Positions 26,572 to 31,763 of a DNA stretch of 64,000 nucleotides are shown here, in pieces. Where the stretch lies: assembly GCA_001603025.1 (NCBI GenBank), contig LVAP01000012.1, positions 1 through 64,000 on the forward strand. Direction: 5' to 3'. The position numbers and the translations under genes are program-made. Within the stretch, counting starts at the first letter, position 1, and each line of letters begins with the position of its first letter. A model generated the notes under the pieces. That model worked only from the letters and a program-made list of their open reading frames with translations, was not told where the DNA came from and did not search any database. The DNA is from Clostridiales bacterium Firm_10. GTDB lineage: Bacteria; Bacillota; Clostridia; Christensenellales; Aristaeellaceae.

Positions 26572-27897
26572 TCACAGCTGCTTCAGCACTTCGTTGATGG
26601 CCCGTGCGCGATGCGAGACGGCGTTCTTTTCTTCCAGTGAAGCCTCTGCAAAAGTCTTGCCGAAGTCCGCGTTCAGGAAGAGCGGATCATAGCCGAAGCC
26701 GCCATCGCCGCGATACTCGCGCAGGATGAGGCCTTCACATGTTCCGCGCCCGATGATGGGCTCGTGTCCGGGGCGCACCAATGCCATCACGCAGGCGTAG
26801 CGGGCGGTGCGCTTTTCATCCGGCACATCCTTCAGCTCTTTGAGAAGCAGCTGATTGTTAGCTTCATCGTCGCCGTGAACGCCGCAGTAGCGGGCGGAAT
26901 GCACCCCCGGGCGGCCGTTCAGTGCGTCCACCTCCAAGCCGGAATCATCCGCAATGCAGGCACAGCCGGTCAGTTTCAGCAAGGCATTGGCCTTGATGAG
27001 CGCGTTTTCCTCAAAGGTCTCACCATTTTCCTCGATCTCGGGATCGAGGCCCAGTTCCTTCATGGAGAGCACGTCGAACTTATCGCCAAGCAGCATGCGC
27101 ATCTCACGCAGCTTCCCGAAATTTGCGCTCGCCAGCACAAGCTTGGGCTTTTTGCCGATGACTTCCGCAGCTTTATCCAATGCTTCCATCTGCTTTCCCA
27201 TGAGCCGGGAGATCCCTTTTTCGCCCAGATCAAGCAGGGTGTTCAGCTCACTTTTGTGCAGGGTCCGGCCTTCGCCGGTGCCCTGGATTTCCACATATTC
27301 CATCTCGCCCGTGGCAGGATTGCGCGTCATGACCAGGTTCATGTCCACCTGGGCGTGACTGTCCTCGATGTATTCCAGGTCCAGCAATGCGGTTTCCTCC
27401 ACCACGCCGACGCTCACGGCGGCCAGATGGCGGGTGACGGGGGAATCCATCAGTTTGCCTTCCTGGATGAGTTTATCCACAGCCAGGCATAGCGCCACGT
27501 ACGCGCCGGTGATGGAGGCGGTTCGCGTGCCGCCGTCGGCCTGGATCACGTCGCAGTCCAGGTAGATTGTGCGCTCACCCAGGCGGGTGAGATCACAGCA
27601 GGCGCGGATTGAGCGGCCGATGAGCCGCTGGATCTCCACGGAGCGGCCGTCGCGCTTGGTGAACTCGCGCTGCTTGCGATGGTCTGTCGAGCCGGGCAGC
27701 ATGGCGTATTCGGCGGTGATCCAACCCTTGCCCGTGCCCTTGAGGAAAGGGGGCACGCTATCTTCGACCGAAGCGGTGCAGATAACGCGCGTTTTGCCGC
27801 ACTCGATGAGCACGGATCCGGCGGCCATTTCGGTGAAGTGCGGGATGATGTTGACGGGACGCAGTTCGTCGAAGCTGCGGCCTCTTGTGCGTTGCAT
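26572..27897 (-). CDS. Fused RNase PH / RdgB (HAM1) nucleotidase
   Basis: The 441-residue protein joins two enzymes. Residues 1 to about 245 are RNase PH, the phosphate-dependent 3' exoribonuclease that trims tRNA, starting [13 protein letters not shown] and holding [34 protein letters not shown] and the QGTGEGR motif. From about 250 ([14 protein letters not shown]) to the end is RdgB/HAM1, which hydrolyses ITP, XTP and dITP; it shows [10 protein letters not shown]-like (here [13 protein letters not shown]), [22 protein letters not shown] and FGYDPLF motifs. Both active sites look intact. ATG 27897 has a GGAGG site. Separate but adjacent genes in Bacillus (rph-rdgB) make fusion a natural step, and similar fusions are known in Clostridia. 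Confidence 0.95.
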
Positions 27898-27933: not shown

Positions 27934-28566
27934 TCAGATATACGATCTAATCAGCGCCTTAACGGTTTCTTCCGTCCCGTTTGCGATGATGTAATCCGTC
28001 ACGATACTGCGGCGCAGCGCACTGCGCACGAGCGTTTTGTCGTATAGGGCGAATACTTCTGGAAGAGCGCGTTTTGTGGCGGCATTTATCTGTTTCAGCA
28101 TTGCCGTGTCGGCGGCCTTCCTCGCGGCATCCACGGGGGGATAGCCTGTGCCGAATGGGCCGTCAAACAGCTTATCCAGCGTGCATTGCAGGTTGATTTC
28201 GCCTGACCAGCCGAAGTTCAGGCCCAATGGCAGGGAAACGGCGTTGCCGCCATTGATGCGCCCGAAGAGGAAGGCGTCCTGGGGCGTGGGCGCATAGCCG
28301 CAGAGCACGCCCGGCAGGCTGTTGCAGGCGAGCATCATGCCCTGTCCAGAGGAGCATCCGGTCACGACGAAATCCACGGCGCCACCCGCCAGCAAGAGGC
28401 TGATGCAAAGCGCCGTCTCCACATAGGTAATGCTGCTGTCCTCATGGGGGAAAACGCCGAAATTGATTATTTCGGCATCCGGACTTTTCACCGCATTCAG
28501 CGTGCAGCTGTACAGCAGTTCATTTTTCCCTTTCTGGGATGCTGCCTGGATTACTCCGATTCGCAT
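27934..28566 (-). CDS. RpiB/LacA/LacB-family sugar-phosphate isomerase
   Basis: This 210-residue protein has the RpiB fold: VVTGCSSGQGMMLACN corresponds to the GTGxGxxIAANK phosphate-binding loop, VLCGYAP to the RAALC segment with the catalytic cysteine, and NGGNAVSLPLG to the NNANVLALG strand. It is longer than typical RpiB (about 150) by a C-terminal helical extension (from about residue 155). The usual opening IGxDHAG is replaced by IGVIQAASQKGKNE, so a substrate other than ribose 5-phosphate is possible. It lies 30 bases downstream of the ZnuA-like gene and 36 bases before the RNase PH gene. Confidence 0.8.
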   Translation of the reverse strand: MRIGVIQAASQKGKNELLYSCTLNAVKSPDAEIINFGVFPHEDSSITYVETALCISLLLAGGAVDFVVTGCSSGQGMMLACNSLPGVLCGYAPTPQDAFLFGRINGGNAVSLPLGLNFGWSGEINLQCTLDKLFDGPFGTGYPPVDAARKAADTAMLKQINAATKRALPEVFALYDKTLVRSALRRSIVTDYIIANGTEETVKALIRSYI

Positions 28567-28596: not shown

Positions 28597-29529
28597 TTAT
28601 GGGTTCGCAGCGCTTTTCAACGTCTCTGCGATGATCTTTGCGTTTTCCAGCATGATGCGTTCATAGGCCCCGCAATCGCCATCGGCGGCATGGGTCATGA
28701 GCGTGTCCAGCCGGGCCACGGCGTAGCCTTCAGCCGTCAGGGCTTCGACAAGGTTCTGCGGCGCCTGCCGTTCGATGAGGATCACGGCGGCTCCGGCGTC
28801 TGCCAGCGTTGCCAGCAGATCGCCCAGATCGTTGCCATACTGTTCGGTGCCCGGCTCGCGCGGATACTCACATACGATATTCAGCCCCAGCTGCCGCGCA
28901 AGGTAACCCAGCCCTTCATGGAGCACGGCCACAGGGAGATCAGGCGCTCGGGAAACGACGTCCTCCATGTCGTCGGCCAGGTTCTGAAGGCGCGTGAGGT
29001 ATTCGCCAAGGTTTTTGTCATACAGAGCGGCATAGGGCTCGTCCATTTGCGCCATGCCGGCGGCAATGGAGATGGAAATGTCCATCGCGCCGGGAACGGA
29101 AAGGAAGAGCCATGGATTGTCGCCTTCCAAATGGCTGCCAGTTTCGCCGCTCGCACCGCCATTGTATAATGTGCGCCCGTTCATCGCGCTCAGGACGGCG
29201 ATTCCTGCGTCGCCCATGGTCAGCGCGGATTCAAAGCTCTCCAGACCGCGTCCACCGATGATGAGCGCATCCTGCCCTGCAATGAGCGCGGCGTCCCAGT
29301 TTGAAAGCTGGTAGGAACGGGGACAGCCCACCTGCGGCTGGACGAGGTTTGAAAGAGTCAGTGCGGGAACGTCCTTCACCAGGTTGACAGAGAGGGCGTA
29401 GAGCGGGTAAAAGGTGGTCATGACGCGCGTGTCGTCCGGCACGGCATCGTCAGTCAATGGGGTGCAGCCGGAAAACGCCGGCAGCGCGGCAATCAGCAGG
29501 AGAGCCGTAAGTCGCTTGAGTTTGTTCAT
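28597..29529 (-). CDS. ZnuA-like metal-binding lipoprotein with altered ligands
   Basis: This 310-residue extracytoplasmic lipoprotein starts at ATG 29529 (AGGAAG site). The signal peptide has a lipobox ending FSGC at about residue 21. The fold matches cluster A-I metal receptors (ZnuA/MntA): TTFYPLYALSVNLV start, DALIIGGRGLES, a long backbone helix, VLHEGLGYLARQLGL and VILIERQ. Two of the four metal ligands are missing: the PHxY His region reads CPRSY, and the NPHxWL region reads NPWLFL. The third His (LHEGLGY) and an acidic residue near the end remain. No ZnuB or ZnuC gene is in the window. Specificity for zinc or manganese cannot be assumed. Confidence 0.8.
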   Translation of the reverse strand: MNKLKRLTALLLIAALPAFSGCTPLTDDAVPDDTRVMTTFYPLYALSVNLVKDVPALTLSNLVQPQVGCPRSYQLSNWDAALIAGQDALIIGGRGLESFESALTMGDAGIAVLSAMNGRTLYNGGASGETGSHLEGDNPWLFLSVPGAMDISISIAAGMAQMDEPYAALYDKNLGEYLTRLQNLADDMEDVVSRAPDLPVAVLHEGLGYLARQLGLNIVCEYPREPGTEQYGNDLGDLLATLADAGAAVILIERQAPQNLVEALTAEGYAVARLDTLMTHAADGDCGAYERIMLENAKIIAETLKSAANP

Positions 29530-29569: not shown

Positions 29570-29598
29570 ATTATACCATAGTTCGAGGCCATGTTCAA
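29570..29598 (-). promoter_or_regulatory. Promoter of the ZnuA-like gene
   Basis: TTGAAC (29598-29593), 17-base spacer, TATAAT (29575-29570), read leftwards. It overlaps the last codons of the upstream glycosidase-like gene and starts the ZnuA-like, isomerase, RNase PH/RdgB, YfcE run. Confidence 0.75.
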
Positions 29599-31763
29599 TC
29601 CTCGAAGGGAAGGATTCGGGCTTCTGTGAAGGCACGCTCGATTTCGCCGAGACTTAAGTCGGTTTTCAGGTATCGCCGGTTGTCGGCGGGAATCAGGGCG
29701 ATGCCATCTTGCACTGCAACGGCGAGCGGCTCGCCGCCGAGACTGTCCGACAGGGTAAAGGCGTTCGGCGAGAGCGGAAGCAGCAGCCACGCAGCGCCGC
29801 GTCTGTGCCAATACTGGACGCATTGCGCGCCCCCATGCGTGAAGGCAAAGGCGGAAACACCCTCCGGTGCGGCAATAGGGTAACAAGCCGCCAATTCATA
29901 ACGGCCATCCTCGTCGATGAGAAGCGTGTGTTCCTGCTTGAGATCCTTCAGCGCTTCCTTCTGCGCCGCGGTCAGCCAATGCCGTGCGCGTACGTCTTCC
30001 CATCGGCGCATGACCTCGAGGATATCGCCGATGCGCGGATGCTCGTTGAAGCGGCCGAGGTCGGCTTGAATGGTGGCAGGGCAGTCCCACGCGGCCGCGC
30101 GGCTTGTTCCATATTCGACCATGTCGGCCTGTGTGCCATCGTCTTCGTCATTCGGCGCCCAAAAGCCCCACCAGCCAAAGTCGAGGCGGGTGAAATCCTT
30201 TCGCATGCGCGGTGCTTCTTCAGCAGGAAACTGTGCGATCTTTTCCTTGAAAACCCGCGGCGGAAAAATATCGAAAGCGTTGCCGCCAGCCTGGAAGTGC
30301 CAGCTGAAATGCGCCTTGGCCGCTCCTTCTGTGAAGGCGGGCGCTTCGTTGAATTTGCGCCAGACGCGCAGCTGCGCGTTCGCCACGTGATACTCGAACG
30401 GCGCGTTCGTGCCTTCTGAACCATCCATGTAGCAGAAGCGGAAGCCGGCATTGTAGACGTTGGCCAGCTTGTCGGCTATTTCATCCTGCAGGTCAGTGTT
30501 CTGATCTATGTAGCAGCTGCTCGCGCCGAATTCGGAAATATCCAGCAGCCCGCCCATCTGGCCGGCCGGATGCTGTTCGGTGTCCGTATCGAAGGCGCCG
30601 CGTCCTATGCCTGTGAATCGGAAAGGCGGCTCGACTGTATATCCTTCGTATGTGATCAGTTCTCCGCCAAACTGCAACACGCGGCGCTTTGGGTGCATGG
30701 CGCAGCCCGTTGGATTCTCTTCGACGAAGAGGTCTCCGTCGGCCTCAAGCGGGCGGGAGAGAGTGAAGCGGAGCGTTTTGTTCAGGCGATGATCGGCATG
30801 CGGCGTAACATAACGGCTTCTGAGGCCGATATGCGTCTGCAGAAAGTGCAGGCCAGGCGTGATGCCGGCAGCCTTGAGGCGCGCGATAATGGTTTTTACG
30901 TCCTCTCTGCCGTTGGGGTAGCGCTCATTGTAATCGTAGTTGCCGCACAGCGAGTAGCCACGTTCCTCCCTGAACATTGCGGTGTAGTAGATGAGCATGA
31001 GTCGGAAGCCGCCTTGCTTCGCACGGGCGATGTGCTCATCGACATTTTCCGGACAGATGTCCCGCGTCCAGTAAACGGATTGATTGATGACCGCACTGCG
31101 GCGGTTCATGACGCCGCGCGGCATGTCATAGTCTGCCTCCAGATGGTCGATGGCATCCAGCAGTCGGTCCGAGGCGCAGGCGATGAGCGCCGCCGCGCAT
31201 CCTTCAAGGCAGATGCCGCGCACGGCGTCAGCCGTCATTACGCGGCAGCGTGCGCGCCTCTCCTGGTCAATACGGGCGTGCGGCGACACAGCCAGCACGC
31301 TGACGGCGGCATGTTCGTCCCAGATCACGTTGAGCCACTCGCCGAAATGCCTGCGGTGCCTGACAGGCAGCTGGCACAGACGCAGCTCTGCGACGGGCGG
31401 AACGTCCATGCAGAGTCCATCGTAATCCTCGCGATCCACGGTGAAGCCGGCCAGCCGGAAACCGATGTAGCAGGGCGTTTCCCGAATTTCGATAATCGCT
31501 TTCACGGGCACGGTTTCAAAGGAAACGTGCAGCAGGTTCCCCACACGACGGACGGAATTGGCCTGATAGGTGGTGCGTTTGTTGGGGTGCGCTAGTTTCA
31601 CTTCATTGTTGAAGGGCCGCTCTTGGGTGACAGAGAACAGCGTGACTTCCTCCTCCGCCTCGAGGCATTCTTCGCCGTTTTCCTTGATGATGAGGCTCTT
31701 CGCAAGGGCGTTTTCTCCCACAGTCAGGCGGAACAATTCGTTTTCCAGAATAATATCCGACAT
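29595..31763 (-). CDS. TIM-barrel glycoside hydrolase-like protein, family unassigned
   Basis: This 722-residue protein starts at ATG 31763, eight bases after AAGGAGC. No signal peptide is seen, so it is probably cytoplasmic. Residues about 1-200 look like a beta-sandwich (many short strands), 200-560 like a TIM barrel with carbohydrate-enzyme features (GGFRLMLIYYTAMF, GITPGLHFLQTH, FRFCYMDGSEG, HFSWHFQAGG, FGWWGFW), and the last ~100 residues a small beta domain. The acid pair in YMDGSEG is the best candidate for part of the active site. It resembles alpha-galactosidase/GH31-like clans in general layout only; I cannot place it in a named family. Own promoter; ends 65 bases before the ZnuA-like gene. 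Confidence 0.65.
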   Translation of the reverse strand: MSDIILENELFRLTVGENALAKSLIIKENGEECLEAEEEVTLFSVTQERPFNNEVKLAHPNKRTTYQANSVRRVGNLLHVSFETVPVKAIIEIRETPCYIGFRLAGFTVDREDYDGLCMDVPPVAELRLCQLPVRHRRHFGEWLNVIWDEHAAVSVLAVSPHARIDQERRARCRVMTADAVRGICLEGCAAALIACASDRLLDAIDHLEADYDMPRGVMNRRSAVINQSVYWTRDICPENVDEHIARAKQGGFRLMLIYYTAMFREERGYSLCGNYDYNERYPNGREDVKTIIARLKAAGITPGLHFLQTHIGLRSRYVTPHADHRLNKTLRFTLSRPLEADGDLFVEENPTGCAMHPKRRVLQFGGELITYEGYTVEPPFRFTGIGRGAFDTDTEQHPAGQMGGLLDISEFGASSCYIDQNTDLQDEIADKLANVYNAGFRFCYMDGSEGTNAPFEYHVANAQLRVWRKFNEAPAFTEGAAKAHFSWHFQAGGNAFDIFPPRVFKEKIAQFPAEEAPRMRKDFTRLDFGWWGFWAPNDEDDGTQADMVEYGTSRAAAWDCPATIQADLGRFNEHPRIGDILEVMRRWEDVRARHWLTAAQKEALKDLKQEHTLLIDEDGRYELAACYPIAAPEGVSAFAFTHGGAQCVQYWHRRGAAWLLLPLSPNAFTLSDSLGGEPLAVAVQDGIALIPADNRRYLKTDLSLGEIERAFTEARILPFED

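What the first reader, a model, noticed from the sequence alone, without database searches (positions are those of the whole stretch)
28597..29529. ZnuA-like receptor missing two of its metal-binding His
The lipoprotein clearly has the cluster A-I metal-receptor fold, but the PHxY ligand reads PRSY and the NPHxW ligand reads NPWLF. No ZnuB or ZnuC gene is beside it; instead it shares an operon with an RpiB-like isomerase and RNA genes. It may bind another ligand, use a cysteine (the C of CPRSY) for another metal, or act as a sensor.
Basis: partly seen in the sequence, partly recalled or inferred. Interest (0 to 1): 0.5.

Follow-up and report, generated by a model that had tools for sequence, protein, structure and literature searches.

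The report
Zinc-receptor relative without its metal site
A Clostridia lineage known from rumen samples keeps a lipid-anchored protein that descends from zinc/manganese receptors but has an arginine where the first metal-holding residue should be and no transporter gene beside it, so it probably does something other than metal uptake.

Summary
The 310-aa lipoprotein at 28597-29529 (minus strand) is a full-length ZnuA-family (PF01297) protein; ligand 1 is Arg (R71), ligand 2 Trp (W140), while H204 and D275 remain. It is not a lone oddity or a decaying gene. I read 49 relatives with R71, all from one Clostridia family: all 49 have H133, W78, D79, E205 and E253; 48 lack at least two of four canonical ligands and 47 lack the Trp at 142. 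dN/dS is 0.10-0.35. On a tree without the ligand columns they part from the proteins that keep His at site 1. No ZnuB-type permease gene was found in 39 sampled loci or the window, against 9 of 20 loci of the nearest intact relatives. The cysteine proposed as a new ligand is in all 23 nearest intact relatives, so it is no innovation. H133 is the obvious candidate replacement ligand; its loop is poorly modelled and cannot be judged. Best reading: a transporter-independent ex-metal receptor with an Arg in its cleft, ligand unknown. The operon neighbours named in the finding are not conserved outside the genus.

The parts
28597..29529 (-). Degenerate cluster A-I substrate-binding lipoprotein, 310 aa
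   Evidence: PF01297 E 7.8e-31; model pTM 0.78
29464..29466 (-). Lipobox Cys22 codon
   Evidence: sequence; C at this column in 47 of 49 R71 relatives
29317..29319 (-). Ligand site 1: R71 instead of His
   Evidence: alignments; R in the 49 relatives grouped by it, H in the 23 nearest intact ones
29296..29298 (-). W78, clade-specific invariant near site 1 (LSDWD-type motif; here LSNWD)
   Evidence: 49 of 49 R71 relatives, 0 of 23 intact relatives
29131..29133 (-). H133, invariant His in the loop before site 2; candidate replacement ligand
   Evidence: 49 of 49 R71 relatives; an aligned His in 9 of 23 intact relatives, whose loops are often His-rich
29110..29112 (-). Ligand site 2: W140 instead of His
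   Evidence: H 31, W 15, Y 2, N 1 of 49
28918..28920 (-). Ligand site 3: H204 kept here
   Evidence: N 28, H 13, S 4, Q 3, Y 1 of 49
28705..28707 (-). Ligand site 4: D275 kept here
   Evidence: D 43, N 5, S 1 of 49
27934..28566 (-). PRK09273/RpiB-like protein, next gene on the strand; not a conserved partner
   Evidence: NF006753 E 2.7e-72; next to the receptor in 3 of 5 genomes of the genus
26572..27897 (-). RNase PH-RdgB fusion downstream; with the receptor in the genus only
   Evidence: Pfam RNase_PH, RNase_PH_C and Ham1; near the receptor in 5 of 5 genomes of the genus, in no other of the 40 loci scored

Best explanation
The protein is an ex-metal receptor: a descendant of a Clostridial ZnuA-type receptor that lost the canonical metal site and was kept as a lipid-anchored binding protein without a transporter gene beside it. 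Shown: fold family, change of the canonical site throughout the clade, residues fixed near it (R71, W78, H133, E205, P257 in 49 of 49, S76 in 48), purifying selection, no linked permease. Inferred: descent from a ligand-intact receptor that had already left its znuBC operon; that the Arg, carried by the loop which brings the first His to zinc in AdcA, now sits in the cleft and holds a non-metal ligand with an acid group, so that the protein works as an extracellular receptor or sensor and not as a metal donor to ZnuBC. Zinc uptake in this genome would then rest on the second ZnuA-family protein on C27 and the unlinked ZnuBC on C117.
For: 49 of 49 R71 relatives have H133, W78, D79, E205, E253. 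Canonical ligands kept out of four: 2 in 39, 1 in 6, 0 in 3, 3 in 1 of 49; in the nearest intact relatives 4 in 22 and 3 in 1 of 23. Residue 142 is Y or F in 47 of 49, but W in 23 of 23 and 24 of 24 H71 rows of the two intact types. Tree of 87 rows without the ligand columns: all 43 H71 rows on one side of a branch, SH-aLRT 97; 40 R71 rows and 4 others on the other side. dN/dS (NG86) 0.10-0.35 in 10 pairs, against 0.15-0.21 in 4 intact pairs. Permease 0 of 39 loci versus 9 of 20 intact loci. In PMC7858048 (passages) changing the three His of AdcA to Ala abolishes Zn binding, and His63 sits on a mobile loop that closes the site.
Against: No ligand, structure or phenotype is known. In AdcAII each single ligand mutant still binds Zn (PMC8416893, passages), so metal binding is not excluded, and 43 of 49 proteins keep a His at site 2 or 3 and 43 of 49 keep D275. 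The clade-specific fixed residues are not significantly enriched near the ligand positions in sequence (4 of 9, p 0.16). A related lineage (L155, L156, L166, one genus) has neither R71 nor H133, so neither is needed by every descendant. 11 of 20 intact loci also lack the permease, so lack of linkage alone proves no change of role.
Confidence: 0.5

Rival explanations
2. A self-locked pseudo-receptor: R71 takes the place of the cation and pairs with D275/E205, so the protein is always in the closed, holo-like form and docks on ZnuB as a regulator or competitor without any ligand.
For: R71 is at the position of the His that closes the site in AdcA (PMC7858048, passages); E205 is invariant in the clade (49 of 49) but 16 of 23 in intact relatives; an ABC-3 permease is present in 13 of the 14 clade genomes of the 60-genome set.
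Against: No model coordinates are available to measure the pair; the permease is also present in nearly all family genomes of that set without the protein (all of the 22 but G018), so co-occurrence says nothing; G021 (79% complete) has the protein without a permease match.
Confidence: 0.15
3. A decaying or functionless gene.
For: Two of four ligands lost, no transporter linkage.
Against: dN/dS 0.10-0.35; none of the R71 matches listed over 270 bits has a stop inside except two with one TAA, G005 and G077, in matches that reach the end of the frame (the frames read are open); ten of the tabulated columns are invariant in 49 of 49; 15 genera of the family at over 270 bits (my count).
Confidence: 0.03

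Closest known systems
Cluster A-I metal receptors (ZnuA, AdcA/AdcAII, YcdH, MntC, FpvC; Pfam PF01297)
   Same: Whole-length sequence family and fold; best structural matches FpvC Z 23.6, MntC 22.4, AdcAII 22.3, ZnuA 22.1
   Different: Sites 1 and 2 are Arg and Trp, the Trp at 142 is Phe, no permease linked
Intact 'GCLHDYQL' ZnuA-type receptors of Clostridia (nearest relatives, e.g. L035, L086, L168)
   Same: Closest sequences (mean identity 26%, at most 37%; the other intact type 19%, at most 25%); shared GC before site 1
   Different: H-H-H-D site intact; 9 of 20 loci have the permease and ATPase genes near
AdcAII of Streptococcus pneumoniae
   Same: A receptor that shares a permease with a second receptor (PMC8416893 abstract)
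   Different: Keeps His65, His141, His205, Glu280 as zinc ligands (PMC8416893, passages)
ZrgA of Vibrio cholerae
   Same: The one exception to ligand and Trp conservation named in PMC7731109 (passages)
   Different: By that paper it aligns poorly with cluster A-I and has a long His/Glu/Asp/Lys region; here the whole family profile is matched

Membership tests
PF01297 / cluster A-I substrate-binding proteins | Whole-length match to the family profile | tested here: met
   PF01297 E 7.8e-31, profile 1-262 of 263
PF01297 / cluster A-I substrate-binding proteins | Two-lobed fold with long linker helix | tested here: met
   Model pTM 0.78, helix 164-193; Z 23.6, 255 aligned residues, rmsd 2.9 to FpvC
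PF01297 / cluster A-I substrate-binding proteins | Conserved metal ligands (His, His, His/Glu/Asp, Asp/Glu) | tested here: not met
   R71 and W140 replace the first two
PF01297 / cluster A-I substrate-binding proteins | The Trp called absolutely conserved in PMC7731109 (that it is the one two residues after the second ligand is my inference) | tested here: not met
   F142 here; Y or F in 47 of 49 R71 relatives, W in 47 of 47 H71 rows of the two intact sets
ZnuABC zinc uptake system | Linked permease (PF00950) and ATPase genes | tested here: not met
   0 of 39 clade loci and none in the window; the only permease match of the genome is on C117
ZnuABC zinc uptake system | High-affinity metal binding and delivery to the permease | not testable with these tools
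   Needs purified protein or a mutant

The most novel reading that the evidence does not exclude
A clade of cluster A-I receptors has given up metals altogether and evolved an Arg/Trp/His cleft for a non-metal molecule, acting as a lipid-anchored extracellular sensor or scaffold without an ABC transporter; it would be a non-metal branch of this receptor class, of which my searches found no description.
Probability: 0.35. Interest if true: 0.6.

Novelty: new variant of a known kind. Interest (0 to 1): 0.42.

Why it matters
Cluster A-I receptors are described as metal receptors with conserved ligands and one conserved Trp (PMC7731109, passages). A conserved, selected branch without them suggests that the fold can be used for something else, warns against annotating such genes as zinc uptake proteins, and offers a natural series (intact and operon-linked; intact and unlinked; degenerate and unlinked) for studying how a receptor changes its job.

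Tried and rejected
Cys69 as a new ligand: rejected, shared by the nearest intact relatives. Operon partners as a clue: rejected. Of the 40 loci scored (one of them, L158, is of the intact type; L155, L156 and L166 lack R71; L146 gave no gene call and was left out) the RNase PH-RdgB gene is near in the 5 of the genus only; in 22 an RNase HI gene is next, and in 14 a SpoIID-domain lipoprotein lies one or two genes upstream. The window genome has its SpoIID orthologue on another contig (C125), and RNase HI matches are in 50 of 60 genomes, so these are no fixed partners. An apparent ZnuC near L154 looks like an ABC-F ATPase (my reading of its sequence; not scanned), and gave no ZnuC hit over 80 bits. 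Covariation of sites 2 and 3 (HN 26, WH 12, HS 4, WQ 3, YN 2, NY 1, HH 1 of 49) looks striking but rests on 2 to 3 changes on the tree; independent pairs cannot support it. Enrichment of clade-specific residues near the ligand positions: 4 of 9, p 0.16, on 30 R71 and 21 intact rows thinned to under 60% identity. Pocket inspection in the models was not possible: no coordinates are returned (one search found no file). Paper searches for receptors of this class without ligands gave only ZrgA, through PMC7731109; the library lacks most subscription papers. Passages of PMC4542158 and PMC6719664 were read and not needed. In one search ten of 14 YN00 estimates failed (the four that ran gave 0.04-0.15), so NG86 is quoted; dS is over 1 in eight of the 14 pairs. 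One search read several loci on the wrong strand; its alignment was discarded and replaced. Left out of the tree: nine R71 rows of one genus (near-copies of kept rows), and L036, L037, L038, L046, L068 and L109; the last two are other PF01297 proteins with Glu at site 1, L109 from a genome of the window's genus.

Full report
What is there. The ORF at 28597-29529 on the minus strand encodes a 310-aa protein with a lipoprotein-type signal (Cys22) and a full-length ZnuA domain. Its best sequence matches among solved structures are YcdH, FpvC and AdcAII (the last two names are). Aligned to them, the first three ligand positions read Arg (R71), Trp (W140) and His (H204); the fourth, D275, is kept.

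Fold. The closest solved chains are metal receptors: FpvC Z 23.6 over 255 residues, MntC 22.4, AdcAII 22.3, ZnuA 22.1 (Foldseek's list is of the same kind). The intact relative L035 was modelled as a control, pLDDT 81.5, pTM 0.81. No coordinates are returned, so the pocket could not be measured.

Relatives. A search with the protein found matches in 35 of 60 genomes. A profile of 13 degenerate proteins (A1) was run on 300 genomes of the same family: 260 had a match at E 1e-10. By my count of the listing 56 genomes, in 15 genera, score over 270 bits; four matches lie at 203-226 (G065, G142, G069, G073) and the other listed ones are under 197 (the list was cut near 148 bits). The same profile on 396 genomes of the order and 391 of the class, at E 1e-55, found nothing above 215 bits outside the family; the three of those that I read (G036, L168, L169) have the intact site. 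So in these samples the degenerate type is confined to one family. Named members are MAGs titled 'uncultured Clostridiales bacterium' RUG13560 and 'Clostridia bacterium ... Sheep_Rumen' (L033, L034).

The site across the clade. I read 49 proteins of 260 aa or more with Arg at site 1: 48 of the 56 genomes above 270 bits (8 were not fetched) and one at 217 bits (G069); a fragment in G001 that does not reach site 1 was left out. Invariant in 49 of 49 among the columns tabulated: C69, R71, Y73, W78, D79, H133, E205, E225, E253, P257. Site 2 is H 31, W 15, Y 2, N 1; site 3 is N 28, H 13, S 4, Q 3, Y 1; site 4 is D 43, N 5, S 1. Of four canonical ligands 39 keep two, 6 keep one, 3 keep none and 1 keeps three. 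The 23 nearest intact relatives (chosen by H71, C69 and score) keep four (22) or three (1). C69 is shared with them, so it is not a substitute ligand. [quoted passage not shown] I take this Trp to be the one at 142, which is W in 47 of 47 H71 rows here and Y or F in 47 of 49 R71 rows. Three sequences of one further genus (L155, L156, L166) have T, G, T at site 1 and no H133, and L105 has Glu at site 1 and Tyr at site 2.

Descent and selection. A tree of 87 rows without the signal peptide and without columns 71, 133, 140, 204, 275 puts the 43 H71 rows on one side of a branch and 44 rows (40 R71, 4 other) on the other, SH-aLRT 97 (quick method; L105, L157 and L051 are long branches; rows left out are named under Tried and rejected). 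R71 alone needs two changes, because the three T/G rows fall inside. The R71 proteins are closer to the intact 'GCLHDYQL' type (mean identity 26%) than to the other H71 type (19%). NG86 dN/dS is 0.10-0.35 in 10 R71 pairs and 0.15-0.21 in 4 intact pairs, with dS often near saturation. Among the 36 family genomes of the 60-genome set, 14 have the R71 type (G001 by a fragment) and no GCLHDYQL type, 16 the reverse, 6 neither, none both (my reading; some PF01297 matches in the 6 were not read; Fisher 1.3e-5, not corrected for kinship). This suits replacement of one by the other. Against a strict rule: G069, outside that set, has both, and G028 has the intact type plus the outlier L105.

Context. 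No ZnuB-type gene, and no ZnuC-type hit over 80 bits, was found by tblastn in 39 loci (3 to 17 kb; 35 with R71 or, for the G001 fragment L081, presumed R71, one of them the 217-bit L157; three without R71, L155, L156, L166; and the poorly called L146) or in the window; the same queries hit the permease in 9 of 21 comparison loci, that is 9 of 20 intact ones and not in the outlier L105. Eleven intact loci are thus unlinked as well; that unlinking came first is inference. The window genome has a second ZnuA-family protein on C27 and ZnuB and ZnuC on C117, with no cluster A-I receptor there by the family search. Neighbours of the degenerate gene are housekeeping genes and differ between genera, so they give no partner.

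Mechanism. In AdcA the first His sits on a mobile loop that closes over zinc, and changing the three His to Ala abolishes zinc binding (PMC7858048, passages). In AdcAII each single ligand mutant still binds zinc, and the site-2 mutant grew worst (PMC8416893, abstract, passages and section 20). Here site 1 is itself a cation and, in the window protein, site 2 is Trp. I infer that the canonical metal mode is lost and that the Arg either binds the acid group of a new ligand or pairs with D275/E205. The first is my leading choice because S76 (48 of 49), W78, H133 and P257 also became fixed; but the clade-specific residues are not significantly clustered near the ligands in sequence (p 0.16). A rebuilt metal site using H133 remains the main rival.

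Verdict. A real, conserved variant of a known receptor class with its defining site changed; ligand unknown; interesting to specialists in metal transport, modest beyond.

Noticed in passing
G000:C27:8166-8972 and G000:C117:7807-9361 (L090, L092): In the window genome the second ZnuA-family receptor and the ZnuBC genes are on different contigs; the same holds in 3 of the 4 other genomes of the genus, though the assemblies are in pieces.
   Followed up: partly
L155, L156, L166: A further lineage (genus g62) has T/G/T at site 1 and no H133 but keeps W140 and H204, and D275 in two of three: an even more degenerate branch.
   Followed up: partly
L105:8491-9339: A genome in three contigs (G028) carries, besides an intact operon-linked receptor, an outlier with Glu at site 1 and Tyr at site 2.
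   Followed up: no
L109:2250-3092 and L068:1396-2259: Two other PF01297 proteins with Glu at site 1 but His at sites 2 and 3; left out of the tree.
   Followed up: no
L091, L094-L103: Eleven intact GCLHDYQL receptors that with L035 form a supported 12-row group had no permease hit nearby: unlinked but ligand-intact, a possible intermediate stage.
   Followed up: partly
L078:6754-8841, L151:3864-6129 and 12 other loci: A SpoIID-domain lipoprotein gene lies one or two genes upstream of the degenerate receptor in 14 of 40 loci, often with radA before and an RNase HI gene after it (radA and RNase HI named by my reading).
   Followed up: partly
29595-31763 (-): 722-aa protein upstream of the receptor without any Pfam match at E 0.01.
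   Followed up: no
26572-27897 (-): RNase PH and RdgB (Ham1) fused in one 441-aa protein.
   Followed up: no
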